A DNA stretch of 64,000 nt from Zoroaster sp. YZ-2022 (taxonomy: Eukaryota > Echinodermata > Asteroidea > Forcipulatida > Zoroasteridae). Within the stretch, counting starts at the first letter, position 1. The number at the start of each line of letters is the position of its first letter. Where the stretch lies: contig CM055822.1 of the NCBI GenBank assembly GCA_029582265.1, positions 3,841,057 to 3,905,056 on the forward strand, in the 5' to 3' direction. The translations under genes were made by a program, and so were the position numbers. Under the pieces are notes generated by a model. The model did no database searches. It saw only the letters and a program-made list of their open reading frames with translations, and was not told where the DNA came from. Below are positions 2,890 through 54,300 of the stretch, in pieces.

Positions 2890-4611
2890 GTAAGTTAAAT
2901 ACCAGGTAAGATGAGCATAGCTTAGACTATAGGAATAGGCCTAATTTAACTATAATCTGACCTAGCATGGCTAGGCCACCTTTTCTTCCTCCCACAGCTG
3001 AGTTCATCCCATAGTAAGCTGAATCAACTTCTTCATCTTGATGTGGGTCCATCAGTTGGTAAGTTGTAAGGTAAGGTAAACCATGGAGGAAAGGAATACC
3101 ATGGGTATAAACTAACTAAAATCGGACTTTATTCCTCCCTTATAGCTGAGTTCGTCCCAGATGGTAAACCTGATCAACCTGTTCATCTTGATATGTGCCC
3201 ATCAGTTGAGCTTGAAGGTAAGTTACAAGGTAATGTAAACTAATATCTGACCTAGCGAGGCTAGGCTACCTTTGCTTCTTCCTGATCCAACAGGTCTGTA
3301 GCCGAGTTCATCTCCGATGGCAAACCGATACCCTGTTCATCTTGACGTGTGCCTATCAGTTGGAGCTTGGAGGTAAGTTACAAGGTAAGGTAGACTAACT
3401 AATATCTGACCTAGCGAGGCTAGGCTACCTTTGCTTCTTCCTGATCCAACAGGTCTGTAGCCGAGTTCATCCCCGATGGTAAACCGATACCCTGTTCATC
3501 TTGACGTGTGCGTATCAGTTGGAGCTTGGAGGTAAGTTACAAGGTAAGGTAAACTAACTAATATCTGACCTAGCGAAGCTAGGCTACCTTTGCTTCTTCC
3601 TGATCCAACAGGCCTGTAGCCGAGTTCATCTCCGATGGTAAACTGATACCCTGTTCATCTTGACGTGTGCCTATTGGAGCTTGGAGGTAAGTTACAAGGT
3701 AAGGTAAACTAACTAATATCTGACCTAGCGAGGCTAGGCTACCTTTGCTTCTTCCTGATCCAACAGGTCTGCAGCCGAGTTCATCTCCGATGGTAAGCCA
3801 ACAATTGGTGGTAAGTTATAAGGTAAGGTAAACTAACTAATATCTGACCTAGCGAGGCTAGGCTACCTTTGCTTCTTCCTGATCCAACAGGTCTGCAGCC
3901 GAGTTCATCTCCGATGGTAAGCCAACAATTGGTGGTAAGTTATAAGGTAAGGTAAACTAACTAAAATCTGACCTAGCGAGACTTGAGGTACCGGTATAAT
4001 GTTAGGTAAACTAAAAACTGACCTAGCGAGACTTGAGGTACCGGTATAATGTTAGGTAAACTAAAATCTGACCAAGCGAGACTTGAGGTACCGGTATAAT
4101 GTTAGGGAAACTAAAATCTGACTTTTCTTTCTCCCTTTATAGCCGAGTTCATCTCAGATGGTAAACCGATAACCTGTTCATCTTGATGTGATGTACCGGT
4201 ACCCTATTAGTTGGAGCCTGGAGGTAAGTTATAAGGTAAGGTACCAGTATACTAACTAAAATCTGACCTAGCGAGGCTAGGCCACCTTTGCTTCCTCCTG
4301 ATCCATTAGATCTGTAGACGAGTTCATCCCAGATGGTAAACCGATAACTTGTTCATTTTGATGTGATGTACCGGTACCCTATTAGTTGGAGCCTGGAGGT
4401 AAGTTATAAGGTAAGGTACCACTATACTAACTAAAATCTGACCTAGCGAGGCTAGGCCACCTTTGCTTCCTCCTGATCCATTAGGTCTGTAGCTGAGTTC
4501 ATCCCAGATGGTAAACCGATATCCTGTTCACCTTGATATGTGCCCATCAGTTGGAGGTATAAAGTTATAAGGTGAACGAACTATAAACCTATTCCTTTAT
4601 TTCATTCACAG
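2890..4611 (+). repeat. Tandem array of exon-like cassettes with splice sites
   Basis: About ten units, most 115-180 bp. Each has a pyrimidine-rich stretch and AG, a 36-81-nt cassette starting C(C/T)GAGTTCATC, then a strong donor GGAG|GTAAGTTA. Cassettes: 2998..3058, 3146..3217, 3302..3372, 3461..3531, 3620..3686, 3775..3810, 3899..3934, 4143..4223, 4318..4398, 4493..4556. A final acceptor (TTTCATTCACAG) ends at 4611. Only 3146..3217 keeps an open frame (EFVPDGKPDQPVHLDMCPSV); the others have stops, so the array is probably non-coding or decayed. Confidence 0.75.
3082..3103. mobile_element. Micro-insertion E (22 bp) inside a tandem-array unit
   Basis: CATGGAGGAAAGGAA then TACCATG interrupts a GGTAAACTAACTAA stretch that is uninterrupted in neighbouring array units (for example around 3546). 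GGTAAAC precedes it and GGTATAAAC follows, consistent with a 7-bp duplication that later gained two bases. Confidence 0.6.
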
Positions 4612-13394: not shown

Positions 13395-14605
13395 CCAGAC
13401 GAATAATAATAAATATGAATACAAACAATATACAATGATAGCATAGAAAAAAAATTATGTACCGAGATACATATACAATGCAATTACAAATATACATCAT
13501 CTTTGAAGAATTGTGACATAAGATGAGTTTTAAGCAGCGACTTAAATCCAGTTATACCATGACAAGATTTGAGTTTAGTTGGAAGATGATTCCAGAGTCT
13601 TGGAGCCGCGACAGAAAAAGACCTATCACCCCAGGTCCGTTTTGAAGTTGGTTCCTTTGGGAGCAGCGGCGTAGCCAGGACTTTTTCAGTGGGGGGGGGG
13701 GGGGGGGGCCCAGGGGTCCAGGGGCCCAGGGGCCCAGGGGCCCAGGAGGTATGGGTTTTTCCCTTTTCTTTTTCTTTTCTGTTTTTTGGGGCACTATGAG
13801 GATTTTTCGTGGGGGGCACCTGGGGGGGAGGGCACTGGAAATTTGTGGGGGGGCACGTGTCCCCCAGGCCCCCGGCTACGCCGCTGTTTGGGAGTGACAT
13901 GTTGCTGGAGCGCAAATTGCGTGATGGAGTGTAGACTTTAAGCAGTTCAGAAATATAAATTGGAACAATGTTATTAAAAGATTTGTGAACAATTAGCGTA
14001 CGTTTAAAAACAATTCTCTGTGAAACAGGAAGCCAGTGCAGTTATTTCAAGATTGGAGTGATATGGCATGACATTCTGGACAAAGTCACTACACGAGCTG
14101 CTGTGTTTTGTATGTGCTGAAGACGAGATATTCAATTCTGCGGGAGACCGTAAAGGAGAGCATTCCCGTTATCAAGCCGTAATGTGACAAACGCATGTAT
14201 AATTTGTTCAGCAGCACTTTGATTCAAGTATTTCCTTATTTGGCCAATATTTCTGATATGAAATGATGATACGCAAACAATGTTGGAGATATGAGGTTTT
14301 AAAGTCATTGTCAAGTCAAATATTAACACCCAAGTTAGGTGCTTGTGATGAGGGGTTATCTGCGAGTCACCAATTGTAATAAATGAAGAGAAACTTTTGA
14401 TAATTGCTGACGCGATCCAAATAGAAGAAACTCTGTTTTTTCGTCGTTCAATTTCAATAAGTTTAGTCTCATCCAACTACGAATCTCTTGAATACATTCC
14501 TCCAGCATTGTAATACACGAATCGACAGGTTCTTGAGAAGATTTGAAAGTAATGTAAAGCTGCGTGTCATCAGAGTAGACATGGTAATTTAAATTATTTT
14601 CTCGG
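13395..14605 (-). mobile_element. CR1/L2-like LINE, 5'-truncated, with RT active-site motif
   Basis: On the minus strand the frame (with breaks) includes HVYSDDTQLYITF, the catalytic Y-x-DD box of a reverse transcriptase, then LNLLKLNDEKTE, ITIGDSQITP, SFHIRN and the C-terminal block RSFSVAAPRLWNHLPTKL...FKSLLKTHLMSQ. It ends in an ATT-type tail. The upstream RT and endonuclease are missing. A hAT MITE interrupts it at 13664..13886. The same family occurs at 22590..23465. Confidence 0.85.
13664..13886. mobile_element. hAT MITE inserted in a LINE
   Basis: Terminal repeats CAGCGGCGTAGCCAGG and its complement CCCCGGCTACGCCGCTG enclose a G- and C-rich core. A perfect 8-bp TTTGGGAG lies on both sides (13656..13663 and 13887..13894). 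The GGCGTAGCCAGG end is a common animal hAT terminus; a similar single end is at 31848..31870. Confidence 0.88.
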
Positions 14606-16598: not shown

Positions 16599-18580
16599 GC
16601 CACTGAGCTGTCCCAATAGTGTCAGTACAGCATCTCGAAGGTCAGCGGACTTTTAAAAGTCTAGTAACTCACAAATGGTCCCTGGAGGACATACCCGACA
16701 GGCGCTGCTTAATGGATCGGAACCTTACACTCCCCGCAGGGGAAGATTATAGGTTAGAAGCTGAGGGACTACATATTTCTACTTGCCTTGTGGGTAAAAG
16801 ACAATTAGAGTAACAAGATAACATTCTTATTGGTTATAAAATATGAAAAACTAATTCTGTTTTTATGACACTGCGCAGTAAAAACAATATTTTCCCACTT
16901 TACAGTTACAAACCCCCCGCTGAAAGATGAATCACTTCAACTACATCAATCACAGTTTGAGGGCGATGTGTTTGTGATGGGGGTAGGTTTACTTCATATT
17001 TCGACTACGGAATTGAAAGACGCCGGTCACACATCATGGTTCGGGCCTGAACAGGTTCATTATTTGGTGAGGAATGTTAAGATGTTATGGAAAGTTACAA
17101 CATTGGTAATAAGTTACCGAATTATTATGTGAAAACTAAATTGGTGTGAAGTTTTCACCCTGAAAATTTATTGTCTGAAGTGGTCTCAGTTGAGAGAAAA
17201 ACTCGAACAAATTAATAATTATGCACGTTTGCAAAAGTTTGCAAAATCGGCGACTTTTTGCTCAAAAAACATTGTGAATGACTGTAAGATAAGACTCTGC
17301 ATTCAACTGCAACTTTCACAGATTTGTTAAATAAAAATGTTGCATGTATATCTTGATTCAAAGAAATTAAGCATATCACAGAAGCAGTTTTGCCAACATA
17401 TCAATGTTGTATCTTTCCTTTTAGACAGTTGGAATTTTTGAAGCGATTACTATGGCAACTACAGAACAGGGTGAGTCGTGCAAATATGCAGCATGTGTGT
17501 AATTTGTGTATATGATAAATTCAGGATATTGTTTTATTGAGATATTGCCGGTAGTACAATAATTGGTTACTCGATCAGGTTCCGTTTCTCCGTGGGTGAC
17601 ATCGGGGCGACCAAAAACATGTTTCGGCTCATCGATTGATCGCGTATTTGGCGAATTCGGTTGTGCTGCAAATGCAATCATTTGCCTCTCCACATTTTTG
17701 GGCTCGGTAATGCTTGGTTTCAAGATGACGGACTGTAAAAGTAACGATAGTTTTGTTTCGTATTTGTTAATGAAGGATGGAATAACTATTCTCACACGCC
17801 AATTGCTTTGTTACATTACAAACTTTCTGGTGAATACGTATTTTTATGCGTTTTCGTGTGGCTCTGTGTGAATGCTTACATGGAATAACTTGATGGCCCA
17901 TTTGTAACAAACGAGAAATATAATGCCAAGCTTGGGTTCGACTTCTGAAAGCTGAGACATAGTCGGCGATCATACATTGTACATGTACCATGATTGTACA
18001 TAGCAGCCCTCTATTTAATCGTGTTGTCCCTTGAATCTGCAAATATCTGTTCAATTCTCAGAAATTGAAACTGTTCAACTTTTTTTGTTTTTGTTTATTG
18101 TTCAACTTTTGTTTTGCAATTCAAGTCCTCGCGTTATATCATTTTTTTTTGTTTTTAAATAAATATCACTATCTTGGTAGTTTTGTGGTGAAAACAGTTG
18201 ATGGACTGGTGAGTTTTGTTACATTATCAAAGTCTCTTACTACTTTATCGAAGAATGAACATTTGACGGCCTTGATATTGTATTCAGAATCTGTTTACGG
18301 AAGAGTACATTGTGTTAGCGTGTGGCTCTCAAACGCTTTTCTGTATTTGTAATAAACAGTATACTTGCAAAGCCATTATTGGTTTCCTGTATTGCACTAA
18401 TTTCCGAGTTTAGCAGAGAATATTTAGGGTTTGGTGAATGTCAGTAACGATTGTCAAGCATCTGGGATCATGTATACCGGACATCATCCTTCATGATAAA
18501 CGGATGGCAGTACCCAATTTAGCCCACAGATTAACCTAGATGGGGATGACTGGCTGGTTATGTGGGTGTGTACCTTTCAG

Positions 18581-18610
18581 CATGGAGGAAGGAAATTTCC
18601 TTCCTCCATG
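18581..18610. mobile_element. Micro-palindromic insertion A (30 bp)
   Basis: Perfect palindrome whose left half is CATGGAGGAAGGAAA. Flanked by CTTTCAG at 18574..18580 and 18611..18617, a perfect 7-bp duplication. Confidence 0.8.
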
Positions 18611-19384
18611 CTTTCAGTGCGGCGTCGGTCCTCACGTAACAGGTATCGAGGTCTGTTAGCAGTTCGCTGGGCCATGTGGCTGGGTACACCATGCCATGGA
18701 TATACTAGCCCAGGTTGGATCATGAAGGAAAAGGATTGTCAATTTTCGTGTAACGTCCGTCGCAGACAGGGAGCCCCTTTTGGGCTGTGTGACTGGGCAT
18801 ACTTGTTTGTATTCTCAGGCTGCATTGTGTAGGGTCCATGTGGAAGTCTGAAGATCTGACGTCACGATTCGAGGCTTGTGAAAGATTAGATCTTCGGTAC
18901 AACGTATCCAATGAAATCCCTTGAATGGTTCGGCCGGAGCCTGTAATCCATCCTTGATAGGATAAAGACAGAGGACCAGTCTGGGTCCATGGCTTTAGCT
19001 ATCTGAGCACAGGGTTACCATAAAGAAAACACGGGGAGTGAATAGGATGGGAGGTGGGGGGGGGGGGGGGGGATTTAAAGGGACTAATGTACATTTCCCT
19101 TTATCATTATCTCTTGTTTGCATTGTTCCCCACTTTTTTGCAGCTTGCCCCCTTTTTGCCACAATGGATCTGCCCCTGAAAAACACTCTTCTCAAGCTCA
19201 GGTTTTTTTGGGTGTTTTTTGTTGTTGTGCCCTTAAGGCTTCTTCTAAGCTTCCTACCTCGCCAACAAAAGGTCACTAAGTGTTTTAAACTGTCGGCGCC
19301 GGTCACAGAAAAACACACGTTCTTTTTTATAATCACAGACCCCTGCAGGCTCTGGGGATTAGTAGCATACTGGCTGTGTAGAAT

Positions 19385-19419
19385 CATGGAGGAAGGAAAA
19401 TTCTTTTCCTTCCTCCATG
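19385..19419. mobile_element. Micro-palindromic insertion B (35 bp)
   Basis: 16-bp arms (CATGGAGGAAGGAAAA) around a 3-bp spacer. Flanked by GTAGAAT at 19378..19384 and 19420..19426, perfect 7-bp duplication. Confidence 0.8.
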
Positions 19420-20263
19420 GTAGAATATTCCCCACAATATACTTATCAAAATGCGTCTGGTTCATGAAAAGAAAATCAGTTTTTTAATAATTATAAATTC
19501 ACACAATGGGCCGCATTTAAATTGAGTGGCGGATCAAGGGTGGATTATCGATGAAAAGAGGGGCCCATTGATCCCCAAATTGGTAGAATGTTATTTATAG
19601 AATATAGATGGGGGTATACAGGCACATATGCTCATTCGCTCTTCCGTCTGTTTGGATAAATTGATGACAGTCAAAGATTATAGACTAGTATGATTAATAC
19701 CGTTAAGGATTTCTGACTTTGTAAATTAAGTCCTTGTTCCGGTACACAAACCCAGTAAACCATTAAGATGTGGTCATTCCTGTTAGAAAGCTACATATGA
19801 TGATATCCCGATTTTGGATGGTAAAAGTTCAAATGCTTGACCTCGGTCTTGTCCCCTGACTCCTGTATAATGTATGAATGCATGCGATTAATGTATAGGT
19901 AATTTGACATTTGTTCATATGACACGTGATTTTCAAGCTCCAAATCTAAAGGTGGGTTGTGAAATCACGTGATCTATATACAACTCATTAGTACTAATTA
20001 GTACTTAAAGTATCGTCACAATCAGAGCAGACTTTTGACAGGACTTTCGACAGGGCATGGAATTGGTACTGAAAACTCAATGGTTGAAAATAATACTCCA
20101 TGAGCGAACGCTGACGTAGATAACATGCTGGAAGTTCGTGGTTATCCTCGCCAGCGACGAACATTAGATAATAGGGCGCGATAAGATCCTATTATTACTG
20201 TGTCTGCTGCGTTAATAATGAGCCAGTGGCTGCATAATAAGGAAATAAACGTTTGTCATGATG

Positions 20264-21936: not shown

Positions 21937-22052
21937 TAACAAGCAAGCAGCAGCCTGCAGGCATGACTACTTCTAGTTCTACAGTATACGGCTATTTCAT
22001 GTCGCATTGCGCAACTTACGACAGTTTATTGGATTACGGTTGATAGTTTATG

Positions 22053-22074
22053 CATGGTATTTCCTTCCTCCATG
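22053..22074. mobile_element. Micro-insertion D (22 bp)
   Basis: Ends are CATGG and CCATG with TTCCTTCC inside. Flanked by GTTTATG at 22046..22052 and 22075..22081, perfect 7-bp duplication. Its complement is nearly identical to insertion E. Confidence 0.75.
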
Positions 22075-22589
22075 GTTTATGTACGAAACAAATGTTGAGA
22101 TGTTTACTGCATATTTTTCTGAAATGTGCTCCACAGCTGTAGTTATTTATGTCTCACCACAGTTTATCAGCATTGGTGTGAGTTACCATTATTACTAGAA
22201 TAATTATTGTCCCATACAGTCTCGTCAAATGTCGGCCCGAGCACAGATTATTTTACCCAGCCAGTGGCGAGACTTTAGACCAGAGAGCAAGGACAGACCA
22301 TGGAGGTAAAAATAGGGCAGACCTACCCAACTATGTTTGTATAAGAAGTTATATATATGTTGAAAAGAAGGTAAGAAAAATAATGTCTTTTTTTAAATAG
22401 GCCTACAACGCTGTTAAAATGTTACGCGATGCTTCACGTCAATGTCGAAATGCTGATAAATGATTTTGTTATGAGTGTTATTGTGAAAGCTCATAGAAAA
22501 TTTCTGACAACATTTTATAACACACTTTTTAGTTGAAATACACCCATCACAACTTCTAAGTTCCCCCTAATATTTTTAAGAATATCTAC

Positions 22590-23465: not shown

Positions 23466-23539
23466 TGAATTTTAAAAATTCAAAAAGCAAATGACAGAAT
23501 GACATGTTCTACACAGCTCGTAATGAAATGGTTGAAATT

Positions 23540-23887
23540 CAATCATGCATGCACAATTGACAGTGATTTGAATGAAAATTCAGCTGAAAAAAAGTTGCAG
23601 TACAAAGCACTGCTTCAATGGCATGTTACACATGGAGAATAATGGAGGACCAATTCCATATTAAACTCTTGCTCTACCCTTCTAAAACAATGGACATGCA
23701 TGTTGCTTGTTGCTCTTTGAATATTCTTTTCTTATTATGAAACAGCCATCAATACCATTGTTATTGATGCATGAGTTCTTACAGAAAACTACATGTGTAA
23801 CGTGCCCTTGAAGCAATGCTTTGTACTGCAACTTTTTTTTCAGCTGAATTTTCATTCAAATCACTGTCAATTGTGCATGCATGATTG
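23540..23887. mobile_element. MITE nested in the foldback element
   Basis: Inverted repeats of about 90 bp starting CAATCATGCATGCACAATTG enclose about 350 bp in total. The equivalent place in the right arm (about 25312..25330) has no insertion, which supports a separate insertion event. The exact duplication is ambiguous. Confidence 0.75.
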
Positions 23888-23924
23888 TATGGAACGCTAC
23901 AGCTGCCTTCGGTGCCCATATCGC

Positions 23925-24275
23925 TTCATTCGGCTGATTCACCATTTCATTCGGCCGATTCACCATTTCATTCTGCTATATCACCATTTCATTCGGCTAC
24001 TCATCATTTCATTTGCCCAATCATCATTTCATTCGGCTAGTCTTCATTTCGTTCGCCTTTTCGTCATTTCATTCGGCCATTCACCATTTCATTCGCCCAA
24101 TCATCATTTCATTCGGCTAGTCTTCATTTCATTCGGCTATTCACCATTTCATTTGCCCAATCATCATTTCATTCGGCTAGTCTTCATTTCGTTCGGCTTT
24201 TCATCATTTCATTCGGCTTTTCATAATTTCATTCGGCTAGTCATCATTTCATTCGGCTATTCACCATTTCATTTG
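23925..24275 (+). repeat. 20-bp minisatellite, left arm
   Basis: About 17 copies of a unit like TCATCATTTCATTCGGCTAG with variants CTTCATTTCGTTCGGC and ACCATTTCATTTGCCC. The long frame across it is only a repeat translation. Confidence 0.9.
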
Positions 24276-25015
24276 CCACCAAGATCAAGCTAGCCGCGGA
24301 TTCAACCGCGGATTCAGCTGCAGGTTTTCTCACGGATTTAACCGGATCAGGTCAGTTTAAAAACTGGATAGGTTGGTCCAGCAGTGCGTGTGAATACTGC
24401 ACTCAATACGGTACATTTCCACACGGCCGGGCGCAGGCGAAATGAAATGATGATTGCGCCCAGCCTCTGTCGTTAAAAGCGTAATCTTATAACGCCAAAA
24501 CCACGATATGCCCTAAGGTGAAATGTCATCTCCATAATTCGTTAACAAAAATTAACAAAAATTAACATTATAGGGGCACAAATTGTTTTAACTTTTGATG
24601 AGTTGGTCACAAATACTCTGCATTGTGTAACTATACACGGCATATACCGGCGATAATGGTACATATTCTAGCGTCACTTTAATTATGACCAACTCGTCAA
24701 AAGTTAAAACAATTTGTGCCCCATTTAATGTTATTTTTTGTTAACTTTTGTTAACGAATTATGGAGATGACATTTCACCTTAGGGCATATCGTGGTTTTG
24801 GCGTTATAAGATTACGCTTTTAACGACAGAGGCTGGGCGCAATCATTTCATTTCGCCTGCGCCCGGCCGTGTGGAAATGTACCGTATTGAGTGCAGTATT
24901 CACACGCACTGGACCAACCTATCCAGTTTTTAAACTGACCCGATCCGGTTAAATCCGTGAGAAAACCTGCAGCTGAATCCGCGGTTGAATCCGCGGCTAG
25001 CTTGATCTTGGTGGC

Positions 25016-25290
25016 AAATGAAATGGTGAATAGCCGAATGAAATGATGACTAGCCGAATGAAATGATGAAAAGCCGAACGAAATGAAGACTAGACGAATG
25101 AAATGATGATTGGGCAAATGAAATGGTGAATAGCCGAATGAAATGAAGACTAGCCGAATGAAATGATGATTGGGCGAATGAAATGGTGAATGGCCGAATG
25201 AAATGACGAAAAGGCGAACGAAATGAAGACTAGCCGAATGAAATGATGAATCGGCCGAATGAAATGGTGAATCAGCCGAATGAAGCGATA
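25016..25290 (-). repeat. 20-bp minisatellite, right arm (inverted copy)
   Basis: About 14 copies of the complement, GAATGAAATGATGACTAGCC, in the opposite orientation to 23925..24275. The arms differ in copy number. Confidence 0.9.
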
Positions 25291-25464
25291 TGGGCACCGA
25301 AGGCAGCTGTAGCGTTCCATATGATTGAATTTCAACCATTTCATTACGAGCTGTGTAGAACATGTCATTCTGTCATTTGCTTTTTGAATTTTTAAAATTC
25401 ATGCAATACTTGTTGAGATATTCTAAAAAATATTAGGGGGAACTTAGAAGTTGTGATGGGTGTA

Positions 25465-32873: not shown

Positions 32874-35447
32874 ATGGTACGGTGGCTTCGGAGACGTTGG
32901 CGTCGGTGGTTGTCACTCGGCTGCCTGGTCGTGGTTGTGGTTTTCAGTTTACGGAGCGACACTTCAGCGACAGGGGAAATAAATGGTGAAGACGCAAGGC
33001 TGGTTGGACTAAAAAAGCAGACACCTTTGGGGCAGTTCGGCGCACCGGAGGCTGCAAATATGGGGTTCAGGTATGAGTACATTTTAGCAATCAAGGAAAA
33101 CCTAAATATTATTGCAATTGTGTTTTGAAATGCAAAGCTTGATGCTTTATATACCAAAAAATGCCATAATTTTGTGACTAGGAATCACAAACACATCAAA
33201 TTCACAGGAATGAGCCTCTGACATGTTAGGAATAAGACACCTCACCCATAACGTGAATATTGCGTAATGGGGTGGGAAGTAGGCATGTGGAAATTTCACA
33301 AATGGCATGCTGCAGGCTATTACGTAATCGGAATTCGGTTACGTTTAAGTTTTCTTTAAAGTTGTGTGTAAGGCCTACCAAAAAGTCAAACGAAACCTTG
33401 CCTTCATTAATAATAATAATGTGTGGACTTATATAGCGCACGTATCCACCAACTAAGTGGTGCTCAAGGCGCATTTTTATTTTTTTAAATTATTTTTTTT
33501 ACGTGCATTACACAACACACGGGACCTACGGCTTTACGTCCCATCCGAAGGACGAAGCAATTATGGTTAAGTACCTTGCTCAAGGACACAAGTGTCACGA
33601 CCGGGGCTCGAACCCACACCCTGCTGCTGGCAACACCAGAACTTGAGTTCGGTGCGCTAGACCGCTCGGCCACGACACTCCTGAGCACAGAAAGCACAAC
33701 GCCATGCCGCGTTTGTCAGAGCGTCATCAGACCGTCATCAGACCCTTGGAATGATGGAAGCTGGCGTGAGCCAGCATGACGTTGCAGAACGCTTCAACTG
33801 CCATCGTAACACCATTTCGGCTCTAGTGAGAAGATATCGAGAAAGAAATGATGCTGCTGACCGCCCACGGACTGGTCGCCCGCGCGTCACAACACAACGT
33901 CAAGACCGCTGGATTCAAGTGACGCACCTGAGGAACAGCCGTCAAACTGTTGCTGGTACTGCACAGAGGATCCCTAACAACAGGCGAATTCACCCCATAA
34001 CGGTTCGTAGGCGATTACGTGAAATAGGGCTACGCCCATGTAGACCTGCTATACATCCCATTTTGACGGTACGTCACCGCCAAGCACGTCTGGGGTGGTG
34101 CAGGACACACGTACGACATCCATAACGCTGGTGGAGAAACGTTATGTTTACCGATGAATCACGGTTCCAGTTATCACGCAGTGACGGCCGTATACGCGTT
34201 TATCGACGCAGGGGTGAACGTTATGCGCAGTGCTGCGTCGTAGAGTGTGATCGTTATGGCGGTGGATCTGTCATGATTTGGGGTGGCATTACGGCACAAC
34301 ATCCCACGAATGTGATCAACGTGGAAGGCAATCTTACGGGGGAGAGGTATCGTGATGGAGCCAGTAGTGGTACCGTTCCTGAGTCAACACGGTCCAGGCC
34401 TTACGTTCCAGGCCTTACGGCTGGTTAGCTCAGTTGGTAGAGCGCTCGTACGGGAATCGAGAGGTCGCGGGTTCGAGTCCGGCATCGGCCAATTTTTCTT
34501 TGCTCGCTATGTTGGTGGGCGGTCCACTTATGCCAATTATTTATTGCTCTATGGGGCCAGGTCAGAGGCCAAACCATATCTGCCGAGTAGCCAGGGATCA
34601 AGCCCCGGTCATATACAAACAACCCGGGTAACGGCAGTAGCGGGGATCACCGGGACACAAGCCTTTTATGTGGTTGTACACAAAGTAGATTTATATGGAG
34701 AAACTGACCTGAAATATTTTACATGTATACATATATATTGGGGGGAGGGGAGTAACTAAAAACCTCCAGCAGGAAGTTTTCCGTCAGCGGCAGTAGTAAC
34801 AACGGCACATTTTCCGTTGCCAGGTTCAGCGGCAGTTTGACCCACTGAGGATGGAGCGGGGTTTAAGCAATTGTCTAACCATTTTGCTTTGGGGGAAAAG
34901 AAATAACTAAAAGTAAGCCCAATACTAGAATAGAAAAAGGGACAAAAACAAGCACTATTGCTGACAATGAATCTAATAATCATAATCCCAATTTCAAACA
35001 CGTTTTCTTTTATAGCATTTTTGTCGATCACTCACTTACGGTCAGGGGTCAGGGGTCAATTTCACAGAGCTGCTGAGCAGAGAAATTTGCTAAGCAAATA
35101 TTTGTGCTAATCAAAATAACAGACTACCAGCCACAATGCATACATTTTGTATGAAAGTTTGCCTGGTTACCAAAGAATTATCTAAGCAAACTTTCCTGGT
35201 AAGCAGCTCTATGAAAATGGCCCCAGGTATGCGTCGAATTTTGATGGAAAGTGCGTATTAAATGCTATAATCGTTGTACGGCGATGGTGCAGCGTTATAT
35301 AAACTCAGAATGTCTGTTAGCTTTGCGAAAATGAAACATGCCTAGTAGAACAGGCGACTCGAGTGGAATCGAACCTACGACCTCTTGCTAGTACAGACAG
35401 ACGTCCACCAAACATGTCGACCAGTACACAAAGTTATTTTGGACGGT

Positions 35448-35484
<37 letters not shown>

Positions 35485-36954
35485 AGATTTGGCCATATCC
35501 CCCTAGGCCTACACATGAATAATTGTTTCTGCCAAAATATGCCCATTCTCGATACGTTGTACCGGTGAAAACAATGTTTAGTAAAGATTTGTTCCTTTGC
35601 TTTATTTTGCAGAAAAAGCCTACAAGCTTTTCCAGATAGAGACACCCGGTCCTCAAACGGTTTGGCCCTTCGCAAACACCCGGAACTAACGGATTCCCAC
35701 CTATACCGTTCAGAGGATGGACGGAACGCAAAACAAGAGCCTCGTTTCAAAATCTACGTGTACGATCTCCCCCCGCGCTTCAACACGAACCTGACGTCAT
35801 GTGCACAAGTTTATTCCAATGGCTGTTACAAGTTTGATAATTTTGGAATGGGACCCGAGTTGCGTCGGCACGACCACCTGTCTTATCGGGACACTCATCG
35901 ATTGTCCACGGAGGTCATCGTCCATGAGAAAATGCTGCGAAGCCGGTACAGGACTTTAGACGTTGAAAAAGCAGACGCTTTCTATGTGCCGTTTTACGCT
36001 GCTCTGGCGTGTAATTGTCGAACGAATATAGAAGGGGATTTGCGTGGACTTTACGAGGAGTTGTGGCATTATCTTTCATCTGCCACACCGTATTTTGGGA
36101 GCTCTGGGCCCCCAAGGAGACCCCACTTCATGACGCTGGGGAAAATTGAGCGCGAATTTTGGACGAATAATTGCCCACTTCTGCGTCACACTGAACGGAC
36201 CAATGGGATTACGTTCATAAGTGTGGAACAGGAAGTGAATGAGGAACTACGGAAATATTTCAAGAGAACGGACGAACGAATGATTGTGGTACCATACCCA
36301 AGTTACGGTCACTTTGATTCGAGTTACACCAGCTCTCTTGGGGTTGGAAAGCGGGCTAGTTTCCCAAGTGATATAAGACAAACCACACGGGATGTTAGAA
36401 TGTTCATGGCGGTCGGAAGCCGCAAAGGACACGACGTACGCGTTATCCTGAAACGCCACATGACCGGCACGTCCCTGCGGTACGCCACGTTCACAGCGTC
36501 CTCGGGCAAGCAGCGTCGGTACGCAGTGTGGTACAGCACCCCCGAGTGTCGCAAAGACATGCAGTTACCCATTGTAGATTGGATGCGACACTCCGTCTTC
36601 TGCCTGCAGCCTCCTGGAGATTCTCTCACCAGGAAATCCTTCTACGACTCAGTCATGGCCGGCTGTATTCCAGTGACCTTCAAACCCAAGAAGAGATCAG
36701 CATCTGTACTGTATCCGTTTCAAGATCAATTGGACTACACGCGTTTCACTGTAAACATTCCTCTCGACGACGTGCTGGCAGGATCTGTACGCGTTTTGGA
36801 TCGACTAAGGATAATCCCAGATTCACGGATTGCTGACATGCAACAGCAGTTGGTTGAAGCCGCTCCCAAGTTACAGTACTCCTATCCGCCAACGTCTGAG
36901 GATGGGGATGCGTTTTCTATGATTGTGGAGGAAATGAAAAGAGTAGCGGCGTGA
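32874..36954 (+). CDS. Exostosin-family (GT47) type II membrane glycosyltransferase, two exons
   Basis: The model joins 32874..33070 to 35613..36954 and encodes 512 aa. The donor GTATGAGT (33071) and the acceptor TTTATTTTGCAG (to 35612) share the same phase: exon 1 leaves two bases and exon 2 supplies the third, giving Arg66. The start codon has A at -3. Residues 1-12 are Arg/Trp-rich and about 13-26 are Leu/Val-rich, a classic Golgi signal-anchor. The luminal domain begins with KIYVYDLPPRF (about 111-121) and carries the GT47 signature FCLQPPGDSLTRKSFYDS (about 395-412), then MAGCIPVTF. The family transfers sugars to glycans or proteoglycans in ER/Golgi. The closest pattern I recognise is the MUR3/KATAMARI-like branch rather than vertebrate EXT1/2, but the substrate is unknown. 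An AG at 32768-32769 after a T-rich run may start a 5'UTR exon. The catalytic exon is one intact block. Confidence 0.9.
33408..33681 (-). mobile_element. tRNA-derived SINE, internally deleted
   Basis: Intact head with A-box TGGCCGAGCGGTCTAGCGCA and B-box GGTTCGAGCCC. The middle is replaced by a T-rich stretch and the tail is present, ending in an ATT run. Lies in the GT47 intron. Confidence 0.85.
33702..34410 (+). pseudogene. Tc1-like (DD34E) transposase, truncated and frameshifted
   Basis: Recognisable segments are the N-terminal helix-turn-helix (EAGVSQHDVAERFNCHRNT), the linker RPRTGRPRVTT, FTDESRFQLSRSDGR with the first catalytic Asp, GGGSVMIWGGI and PFLSQHGPGLTFQ. The frame is broken near 33745, near 34125 and again near 34350. 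The sequence stops just before the region that should hold the second catalytic Asp and the Glu, where the tRNA-like unit begins. It is dead, and no terminal repeats were found. Confidence 0.85.
34419..34491 (+). tRNA. tRNA-like sequence, probably a SINE head or pseudo-tRNA
   Basis: The 73 nt fold as a cloverleaf. The acceptor stem GGCTGGT/ATCGGCC is fully paired (with G-U pairs), the D-arm is GCTC/GAGC, the A-box TTAGCTCAGTTGG and the B-box GGTTCGAGTCC. A T5 Pol III terminator starts two bases later. Oddities are C instead of U at position 33, a T.T mismatch closing the anticodon stem, a G.G mismatch in the T stem, and a formal anticodon GGG (Pro), which is rare in eukaryotes. It is more likely a transcribed SINE head than a working tRNA. 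Confidence 0.45.
35052..35224. mobile_element. GGGTCAATTTCACAGAGCTGC-type MITE
   Basis: GGGGTCAATTTCACAGAGCT at left and AGCTCTATGAAAATGGCCCC at right form about 22-bp imperfect inverted ends. About 170 bp, in the GT47 intron. Confidence 0.6.
35348..35440 (-). mobile_element. SINE-like tRNA B-box fragment, second copy
   Basis: On the minus strand CTAGCAAGAGGTCGT precedes GGTTCGATTCC, matching the fragment at 8190..8245. A 27-bp poly(A) run (plus strand) lies just to the right. Confidence 0.4.
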
Positions 36955-43560: not shown

Positions 43561-45227
43561 TTAGCCAATGAAGTTCAAGACAACTAGATGAAGAATAATA
43601 CTACCAAAGATGAAATCTGCAAAGGCACGTTCTGGAGAGGTGTTCCGAAAATCTAATCTGTTGGCTGGGTTGACTTGTAGTCGCAGGCAAACTGTACGTA
43701 ATATACAGAAAACCACTGATCAAAGCAACAGCATTTTTAGTTTCATTTAGAAGCAAGTAAGCAACATTCAGGGGAAAAATTAAGCATGTAATGGTAGTTG
43801 TGATTTCTTGGCTCTCAATACCATTTGAACATTCCGTCATCAAATAGGTTGAATTCACTGAATGCAGTACAGGGTTCCCCCTAGTGTGACTGCCTCTTCC
43901 CCTCAGTCTCTGACTCAGAGAATTTGCTAAACATGATAGGGCCTATCTACCCTGTTCATACTCTGTTTTTGCATGGGTACAACTATAGAATGCCCGGCCA
44001 CACCGAAGGTTACTTCTTATAAATTTACGTAATCTGACTTAATTTAAGCATGGAGGAGTCCTTCCTCCATGATTTAAGTAAAATACACAACTGTGGTTCC
44101 TCGGTCAAATTCAGAAAAAGGGAAAAATTTGGCCCTGCATTCTATAGGAACTCCTTTGCATGTTGTGTCAGTACACCACAACGGCACAAGTGTTATACTG
44201 GCAAATTACAAGTACTTAATAATATTACCATTATTATTATTAATGGACTAACGTTACACACAGTGCAGTGTCACTGTCACTAGTGTCAGTTTTCTATTCT
44301 AGCTAATATTTATCGGAACAGGATCCTAAGGCCATGAGAATGAAAGTCATAGATTTGCGTCCACCGCCCGCATGTCCCAAAAGCTACCGCCTAAATTGTT
44401 CATTATTTGCCAAAAAAATCATTATTTGCACAAAAAATGTATTTTCACCAAACAAATTTAGTTCCAAATCATCCACATCAGTAAAACGAAGTTTTTACCA
44501 AATTTCCACCAGTATGTGCGCTATAAAATAATCATTAGCACATGTTCTCTTACAGTCTTAGTCCCGCGTACGTCGTTCACAAAAAAGGTCGCATCGCGCT
44601 AAAAGTAAAACTGTATGGTAAACTCCGTCCGATCCGCACCTGCAACTGTACCGCCTTCACATGCACAACACGTTCGCTGTTGAGCCTAGTGAGTAGTACT
44701 AGTATGCCTGTGTGTGCGGCCCGCACGTATAATGATGCATGTACGTACACAGATTAGAAGAAACATCTTGTGATTGCGCTGTTATTAATGATCAATGGAA
44801 ATAATGAATAATGAATAATGAAAAAAAGCCTCATGTGTTTTCAAAATTTCCCGGACGCAAATCTATGACTTTCATTCTCTTGGCCTAACCTAAGTGATTC
44901 CTATCCTATTTGTTTATTTGCTTTGGAAGTTTGTCACCCCATCCCTTCATCCATTTAGAATGCCGATAAGGTTTATTCAGCATGATCAGTCATTAACGTT
45001 AAAGACGATTCCCTACCTCCCAAAACGAAAGAACCGACACACGAAATGAAACCAGACAGGAACGAGTTGAACGGGAAAGTTCCAACGAGAACGCAGTACA
45101 CAAACTGCACAATTCCCGTCAGCATGATGTAGGCCAGGTACGCATCGATAATCTTCAGCTTCTGCGAGGTCTTGCCCGTGTACTCCTCGTAGAATTTACT
45201 GAGAACCGTGAACAATTCTATTGCCAT
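43561..45227 (-). CDS. DAD1: DAD1, oligosaccharyltransferase subunit, two exons
   Basis: On the minus strand exon 1 is 45227..45017 and exon 2 is 43691..43561. The donor GTAGGG and the acceptor ending TACGTACAG are both phase 1 (G|TT makes Val71). The product is 113 aa, the same length as human DAD1. It contains the near-invariant core [20 protein letters not shown] (about 48-67) and the exon 2 blocks NPAN and [10 protein letters not shown], ending [13 protein letters not shown]1 is a small multi-pass ER membrane subunit of the oligosaccharyltransferase that N-glycosylates nascent proteins; its loss triggers apoptosis in mammalian cells. The Met at 45227 is chosen because it gives the family length, although the frame stays open upstream. 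ETS-like AGGAAGT and GGGAAGT motifs lie at about 45303-45332. The intron carries a MITE with TAA duplications. Confidence 0.97.
44049..44071. mobile_element. Micro-palindromic insertion C (23 bp)
   Basis: 9-bp arms CATGGAGGA and TCCTCCATG. Flanked by ATTTAAG at 44042..44048 and 44072..44078, perfect 7-bp duplication. Lies in the DAD1 intron. Confidence 0.8.
44330..44885. mobile_element. Harbinger-like MITE in the DAD1 intron
   Basis: Terminal inverted repeats of about 32 bp, beginning GGCCATGAGAATGAAAG at left and differing by one base at right, enclose 556 bp. Both sides are flanked by TAA (44327..44329 and 44886..44888). A 3-bp TAA/TTA duplication is the hallmark of the PIF/Harbinger superfamily. 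No transposase is present. Confidence 0.8.
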
Positions 45228-53735: not shown

Positions 53736-54300
53736 TAAGGACATGTTATGTAATCTCTCTTTTGAACGTGTGGTGGCCCTGAAAAGGGCCGTTGGTTTTG
53801 TTGTTTAGAGACTGTAGGGAACGGCAAGTCCCACGGACTTTGGCACTTACGCCAAACTGCCTGAGCTGATTCGTAGTCCATGACGATCTGCTGGATTCTA
53901 TTTTTACCTCCATGGTGTGACCTTGACGGCAACTGCTTCTTCACGCACGGCCCTCAAAACCTTCCGGTCGTCACGCTTGGTCCGTCTTGACATCATGCAA
54001 AACGCCAGCGGTATCTGTTTCAGGGAACCGGAGTCCCCCTTCACAAATGCATGGATGCCAAACATCTGTGTAAACGGCTTGGAGATAACCTTCAATGTCG
54101 CATCCAATTACCATGACTTGGCCTTGTCCAAAATCGCCACCTGTTCTTGCGTCATAAAAACTACGACGATGTCCTTCGATAAAAAGTTCTCGGGAATAAA
54201 GTCCATCGCCAACTCAAAAAACAAAGACGCCGGATGGGTCTGCTGGACGCTGCCCCTGCCGCGGCCTGGTTGGCTGTGCGGGCTAGAGCGATGAGGTCAT
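53735..54300 (-). pseudogene. MULE-domain transposase fragment, broken
   Basis: Minus-strand frames read MDFIPENFLSKDIVVVFMTQ, a stop after AKSW, then LDATLKVISKPFTQMFGIHAF, LKQIPLAFCMMSRRTKRDDR and, in another frame, QQIVMDYESA. The D-A-T-(F/L)-K-V...Q-L/M-F block and the V-M-D-Y/F-E block are typical of the MULE transposase core, each with a conserved acidic residue. One stop codon and at least one frame break (near 53900, coinciding with an inserted TGGAGGTAAAAATAG stretch) show it is inactive. It may represent the family that mobilised the 9-bp-duplication MITEs here, but terminal sequences differ, so that link is inference. Confidence 0.7.

What the first reader, a model, noticed from the sequence alone, without database searches (positions are those of the whole stretch)
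18574..18617. Family of 22-35-bp palindromic insertions with 7-bp target duplications
Five sites share CATGG...CCATG ends with GGAAGGAAA-type interiors: 18581..18610, 19385..19419, 22053..22074, 44049..44071 and 3082..3103. Four have perfect 7-bp direct repeats (CTTTCAG, GTAGAAT, GTTTATG, ATTTAAG); the fifth (GGTAAAC) is nearly so. The fifth sits in a tandem array whose other units show the uninserted sequence, giving a built-in empty site. Insertions D and E are nearly the same 22-mer in opposite orientations. These would be among the smallest transposon-like insertions I can think of. They may be end-to-end deletion products of a larger element; Dada-type elements make 6-7-bp duplications, but that link is speculative.
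Basis: partly seen in the sequence, partly recalled or inferred. Interest (0 to 1): 0.88.

Follow-up and report, generated by a model that had tools for sequence, protein, structure and literature searches.

The report
Palindromic scars of departed P-type transposons
The tiny palindromes are most likely not miniature transposons but scars left where a larger cut-and-paste transposon, probably of the fruit-fly P-element kind, jumped out of a sea star genome, and the same genome carries over a thousand like them.

Summary
Four sites have perfect 7-bp direct repeats; the fifth differs by 2 bp and has empty copies in its own tandem array. The host is a sea star with a 1.0-Gb genome. The 15-base end CATGGAGGAAGGAAA occurs 4284 times against 3 for the reversed control; two-armed palindromes occur at 1314 places against 0 (segmental copies included). 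Of 29 independent two-armed sites bounded by their arms alone, 22 have an exact 7-bp flanking repeat and none has one of 3-6 or 8-12 bp. Interiors vary and arms are trimmed unequally: this looks like break repair, not a replicating mini-element. I read them as excision footprints: repeat, up to about 20 nt of each terminal inverted repeat, repeat. P-superfamily transposases leave such long stretches. P transposase domains abound here, and a family with P transposase matches leaves similar palindromes. Weak points: no P domain was found near CATGGAGG ends among 50 places compared; candidate longer elements are known by coordinates only; the duplication is 7, not 8 bp. Scar reading strong; P assignment inferred.

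The parts
18574..18580 (.). left copy of 7-bp duplication CTTTCAG
18581..18610 (.). scar, 30 bp: 15-nt arm + 15-nt arm, perfect palindrome
18611..18617 (.). right copy CTTTCAG
19378..19384 (.). left copy of 7-bp duplication GTAGAAT
19385..19419 (.). scar, 35 bp: 16-nt arm, TTC, 16-nt arm (TTC read on the other strand continues the arm as AAAAGAA, seen also at L051, L023, L066)
19420..19426 (.). right copy GTAGAAT
22046..22052 (.). left copy of 7-bp duplication GTTTATG
22053..22074 (.). scar, 22 bp: left arm cut back to 5 nt, right arm 15 nt
22075..22081 (.). right copy GTTTATG
44042..44048 (.). left copy of 7-bp duplication ATTTAAG
44049..44071 (.). scar, 23 bp: arms of 9 and 13 nt
44072..44078 (.). 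right copy ATTTAAG
3075..3081 (.). left copy of duplication GGTAAAC, inside a tandem array
3082..3103 (.). scar, 22 bp, CATGGAGGAAAGGAATACCATG; 20 of 22 bases as the reverse complement of 22053-22074
3104..3112 (.). right copy, changed: GGTATAAAC
3809..3848 (+). array unit with the unoccupied site (92.5% ungapped to the joined flanks)
3933..3972 (+). array unit with the unoccupied site (95% ungapped to the joined flanks)

Best explanation
Each site is the excision footprint of a cut-and-paste transposon family with ends CATGGAGGAAGGAAA(A)(CAGA/GAA...). The element inserted at a 7-bp target (GTTNAAC-like) and duplicated it. Later its transposase cut at the outer 3' ends but about 16-20 nt inside the element on the other strand, so the donor flanks kept that much of each inverted repeat as overhang. 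End joining with fill-in, trimming and a little filler sealed the gap. The result is duplication + arm + reversed arm + duplication. Such a long stagger is the signature of P-superfamily transposases, so the element was most likely a P-type transposon or a non-autonomous relative. Shown: duplication, palindrome, variable junctions, empty sites, genome-wide abundance, P transposase domains in the same genome, like palindromes made from the end of one family with P transposase matches. Inferred: the cut positions, the end-joining step and the P assignment of this particular family.
For: 15-mer end 4284 vs 3 reversed; two-armed palindromes 1314 places vs 0; 20-mer end 424 vs 0. 22 of 29 independent two-armed sites have an exact 7-bp repeat, 0 of 29 at 3-6 or 8-12 bp. 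32 of 58 sites found by one 15-mer arm have the 7-bp left flank repeated exactly 15-70 bp on; shifted controls 0, 1, 1. Of the 50 two-armed sites listed first, 49 are 27-40 bp although the pattern allowed 56, and the 50 hold 34 distinct sequences. Arms pile up at 15-16 nt (47 of 74 arms in 37 sites). Scars with one arm lost or cut to 1-3 nt but the duplication kept: L006, L007, L031, L037, L050. Empty sites: L011:2499-2566, 68 of 68 identical to the joined flanks; window 3933 and 3809; L021 and L038 show each other's empty site. Target: G 18, T 24, T 19, mixed, A 19, A 24, C 16 of 32 sites. P transposase: PF12017 59 matches, PF21788 107 matches, each 0 of 14 control genomes. A family with P transposase matches (L072; 25 of 43 matches start at bases 275-281) leaves 34 palindromes of its own end, control 0. 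Literature: P transposase makes 17-nt extensions (PMC7776569 section 7 read); an end-joining footprint is the overhang sequence flanked by duplications (PMC3878927 passage); zebrafish P-like ends begin CATACCTG (PMC10983969 passages).
Against: No P-domain match was found near a CATGGAGG end: of 50 domain places compared on C1-C4 the nearest listed 20-mer is 15.8 kb away, and five on C1 are about 32 kb or more from any listed 15-mer (only the first 100 of 424 20-mers and of 4284 15-mers were listed). Four + to - pairs of the 20-mer among those 100 (131, 751, 2072, 5882 bp) could be elements, but none holds a PF12017 or PF21788 match, and their letters could not be read. The duplication is 7 bp, whereas Drosophila and zebrafish P elements give 8. 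Some arms reach 19-20 nt, not 17. 26 of the 58 one-arm sites have no exact 7-bp repeat within 70 bp (8 of these have one with 1 mismatch). Repeats flanking the scars of the L072 family could not be read.
Confidence: 0.76

Rival explanations
1. Excision footprints as above, but of another cut-and-paste superfamily (Dada, MULE, hAT or an undescribed one) that also leaves many terminal bases.
For: No P domain found near CATGGAGG ends; 7-bp duplications occur in Dada (PMC8869645 passages).
Against: Mariner, piggyBac and hAT scars keep few or no element bases (PMC3878927 passages; for MULE recall only). Many Dada elements sit in RNA genes, the five window sites do not. A family with P transposase matches makes like palindromes in this genome.
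Confidence: 0.15
2. Miniature palindromic elements of 22-35 bp that move as such.
For: Exact duplications and high copy number. Some interiors recur: AATATT in 4 of 50.
Against: Interiors and arm lengths differ from site to site (34 distinct of 50; arms 0-16 nt); some sites keep a single arm. A mobile unit should keep both ends.
Confidence: 0.03
3. Internal-deletion products formed inside the element (not by excision), i.e. elements shortened to their ends.
For: Also gives ends flanked by duplications; internally deleted P-like elements occur in zebrafish (PMC7776569 passage).
Against: Deletion endpoints should spread over the whole element; here the arms stop at 16-20 nt.
Confidence: 0.05
4. 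Chance palindromes or a satellite.
For: None found.
Against: Controls of 3, 0 and 0 and the 7-bp-only duplications.
Confidence: 0.01

Closest known systems
Drosophila P element excision footprints
   Same: Duplication + terminal bases of both inverted repeats + duplication, from a long staggered cut (17 nt; PMC7776569) and end joining; from recall the Drosophila end also begins CATG.
   Different: 7-bp not 8-bp duplication; arms up to about 20 nt; over a thousand inherited places in one genome rather than scars scored in excision assays.
Zebrafish Pdre2/THAP9
   Same: P-like ends (CATACCTGTCAAC), THAP transposase, excision without detected reintegration (PMC10983969 passages and section 6).
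   Different: 8-bp duplications, at least 50 copies, larger flanking deletions in S2-cell assays.
Dada superfamily
   Same: 6-7-bp duplications (PMC8869645 passages).
   Different: Many insert in tRNA/snRNA genes; long retained arms are not mentioned in the passages read.
MITEs
   Same: Small, palindromic, flanked by duplications.
   Different: MITEs keep both full ends and a common interior (recall); these do not.

Membership tests
P superfamily | Transposase with THAP, PF12017 helix-turn-helix and GTP-binding insertion in an RNase H fold, encoded by an element with these ends | tested here: inconclusive
   Domains abundant in the genome but none of 50 compared places lies within 15 kb of a listed CATGGAGG 20-mer; candidate elements could not be read and the PF21787 search did not complete.
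P superfamily | Excision leaves a long stretch of each end (17 nt in Drosophila) at the donor site | tested here: met
   Arms mostly 15-16 and up to 19-20 nt, inserts of 27-40 bp in 49 of 50; inferred from products, not from a cleavage assay.
P superfamily | 8-bp target duplication | tested here: not met
   7 bp in 22 of 29, 8 bp in 0 of 29. That 7 bp also occurs in the superfamily is recall only.
P superfamily | Ends beginning CA (CATG in Drosophila from recall, CATAC in zebrafish) | tested here: met
   CATGG here; the L072 family with P transposase matches begins CAAAG.
P superfamily | Palindromic target preference (Drosophila, recall) | tested here: met
   G18 T24 T19 N A19 A24 C16 of 32 sites; the table counts both strands and so is symmetric by construction.
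Dada | Insertion in multicopy RNA genes | tested here: not met
   The window's tRNA gene is at 34419-34491 and the other Rfam match at 53750-53795, none at the five sites; sites elsewhere not tested, and the source says many, not all.
MITE | Conserved full-length ends and interior among copies | tested here: not met
   34 distinct sequences of 50; unequal arms.

The most novel reading that the evidence does not exclude
A P-type family has largely erased itself from a sea star genome: 1314 two-armed scar places (segmental copies included) remain against a few candidate elements. This suggests excision uncoupled from reinsertion, as reported for zebrafish THAP9, or a clearance in the germ line. 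The scars would be a readable ledger of very many excisions and of the animal's germ-line end-joining habits, with a stagger length that may differ between families (about 20 nt here, perhaps 24-25 nt for the L072 family).
Probability: 0.3. Interest if true: 0.78.

Novelty: new variant of a known kind. Interest (0 to 1): 0.6.

Why it matters
Excision scars of most cut-and-paste transposons are a few bases and hard to recognise later. Here they are long, tagged by a recognisable end and present in four figures, so one genome gives a count of excisions, their relative age through duplicated flanks, and a spectrum of end-joining products inherited through the germ line of a non-model animal. It also asks why scars outnumber elements so heavily, and whether stagger and duplication length vary across P-type transposases. 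Repeat annotators could mistake such scars for micro-elements.

Tried and rejected
Rejected: mini-transposon, chance, satellite, Dada (see rivals). Tried without result: reading the 5' end of the P transposase genes at C19 (L071) and C14 (L073). The 600 bases of L073 searched (201-800) lie inside a family with 30 other long matches at 79-99% identity, so the end was not reached; the L071 boundary search did not complete. L074 (upstream of L072) shows no CATGGAGG end (by eye). 'CATGGAGTATTTGG' at L073:417 looked like an end but is internal. L065/L068 and L019/L046/L048/L055 looked like true element ends with a shared interior, but their flanks are shared too: segmental duplications inside C1. 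Whether the first exon of L072 is a THAP domain is by eye only; the Pfam call for it failed. PF21787, meant to ask what the 5882-bp candidate encodes, did not complete, nor was PF21789. A paper search for CANRG gave, in the 20 of 40 listed, unrelated papers. The paper searches for P-element footprints, P elements in sea stars and genome-wide footprints (12 of 106 listed) showed, by title and start of abstract, no paper describing such a genome-wide set; most subscription papers are not held, so that is no proof of absence.

Full report
Check of the observation. Four are flanked by perfect 7-bp direct repeats; the fifth by GGTAAAC and GGTATAAAC. In a scan of the window for exact 7-bp repeats around 12-60-bp inserts with inverted ends, these four stand out from shuffles (7 raw hits, 3 of them in tandem repeats; ten shuffles gave 0 in eight and 1 in two). 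The array around 3082 does carry unoccupied units (3933-3972, 95%; 3809-3848, 92.5%, both ungapped to the joined flanks).

Where it is. The window lies in a 1,001,958,528-base genome of 616 contigs. An exostosin-like ORF at 35662-36954 is 83% identical to proteins of Asterias, Patiria and Acanthaster, and a histone 3' stem-loop is present, so the host is a sea star; the species is not identified.

Genome-wide test. CATGGAGGAAGGAAA occurs 2138 + 2146 times, reversed control 3 + 0. CATGGAGGAAGGA-N{0,30}-TCCTTCCTCCATG occurs at 1314 places, control 0. CATGGAGGAAGGAAAACAGA occurs 211 + 213 times, control 0. These counts include segmental copies: C1 is rich in duplicated stretches, and the first 50 two-armed sites hold 34 distinct sequences.

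Duplications. Of 58 sites with one perfect arm (segmental copies not fully removed), 32 have the left 7-mer again 15-70 bp on, controls 0, 1, 1; 26 do not. Bounding the insert by its two arms alone and removing shared flanks leaves 29 sites, four of the window's five included: exact repeat of 7 bp in 22, of 3-6 or 8-12 bp in 0. The 7 misses are three where a stray CATGG set the boundary wrongly (L016, L031, L056), one with 1 mismatch (L062) and three disturbed sites (L027, L045, L050). In the 32 sites the target reads G18 T24 T19 N A19 A24 C16.

Anatomy. A scan that requires the exact 7-bp repeat gives 37 independent sites (two of them, L004:344 and L044:786, with a sister end). Their inserts run from 15 to 51 bp with a mode of 32, and 47 of 74 arms end at 15-16 nt (arms were scored up to 16). 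Some sites keep one arm only, the other lost or cut to 1-3 nt (L006, L007, L031, L037, L050). At L001 the filler copies flanking sequence (by eye). Beyond base 16 the same continuations recur (AAAACAGA, AAAAGAA), up to one perfect 40-bp palindrome among the 50 listed. So up to about 20 nt of each end can survive. This spread of trimmed, joined ends is what repair of a break makes; it is not what copies of one mobile unit look like. Empty sites exist: L011:2499-2566 matches the joined flanks of L011:1501 in 68 of 68 bases, and L021 and L038 are paralogues with scars at different places, each showing the other's empty site.

Why P. P transposase cuts at the 3' end of the element and 17 bp inside on the other strand (PMC7776569 section 7). 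End joining then leaves a footprint of overhang plus duplications (PMC3878927 passage). Of the cut-and-paste superfamilies I know, only P leaves so much (recall). This genome has 59 matches to PF12017 and 107 to PF21788, each 0 of 14 in control genomes, with frames up to 762 aa. As an internal control I read 950 bp upstream of one P transposase gene (L072). A THAP-like first exon starts at base 448 (by eye). In a genome search 25 of 43 matches begin at bases 275-281, 16 of them exactly at 279, so the element begins CAAAGATCGTATAGCGCC. Palindromes of that end occur at 34 places, control 0, 26-52 bp long (the pattern allowed 54); 26 of the 34 could be read, with arms mostly up to 24-25 nt, one scored 30 because this end itself folds as a hairpin. 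A transposon family with P transposase matches thus leaves the same kind of palindrome. The repeats flanking those 34 could not be read, so that control is incomplete.

Against P. No P domain was found near CATGGAGG ends: of 50 places on C1-C4 (some are two domains of one element) the nearest listed 20-mer is 15.8 kb away; five on C1 are about 32 kb or more from a listed 15-mer. Among the first 100 of 424 places of the 20-mer, four + to - pairs could be whole elements (131, 751, 2072, 5882 bp); none holds a match, which themselves are lower bounds. Either these are non-autonomous and their helper is diverged or lost, or the family belongs elsewhere. The duplication is 7, not 8.

Other families. 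L004:344 (GTCAGAC) and L044:786 (GTTTAAC) carry scars of a sister end, CATGGAGGTA.... L031:2796 and L031:5027 show CA...TG palindromes within 8-bp repeats. Scarring by several P-like families is therefore likely in this genome.

Verdict. Excision scars: about 0.9. Scars of a P-type transposon: 0.76. The mechanism is known; the scale, the 7-bp duplication and the longer arms make it a new variant.

Noticed in passing
23470-25397: Long inverted repeat (a roughly 1.9-kb foldback, ends identical over the bases tested) whose arms hold tandem 20-mers at 23925-24273 and 25017-25284.
   Followed up: no
35662-36954: Open 430-aa exostosin GT47 frame, named xyloglucan galactosyltransferase-like in other sea stars; relatives in echinoderms, hemichordates, lancelets and molluscs.
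   Followed up: partly
13656-13894: Possibly a hAT-like short element: 8-bp repeat TTTGGGAG and ends CAGCGGCGTAGCC (the hAT label is recall).
   Followed up: no
L004:344-372 and L044:786-817: Scars of a second, related end CATGGAGGTA... with exact 7-bp repeats.
   Followed up: partly
L031:2796 and L031:5027: CA...TG palindromic inserts within exact 8-bp repeats GTTTAAAC and ATCAAAAC, perhaps scars of other P-like families.
   Followed up: no
L013:1481 and L053: Next to the scar and its repeat stands a further CATGGAGGAAGGAAC arm: nested or repeated events at one site.
   Followed up: no
C1 of G000 (L019/L046/L048/L055, L029/L032, L043/L058, L013/L053/L067): Many segmental duplicates on C1, with small differences inside some copied scars.
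   Followed up: partly
L073:1-294: Inverted repeat (79% over 308 columns) upstream of the transposase exon of a P family with 30 other long matches at 79-99% identity.
   Followed up: no
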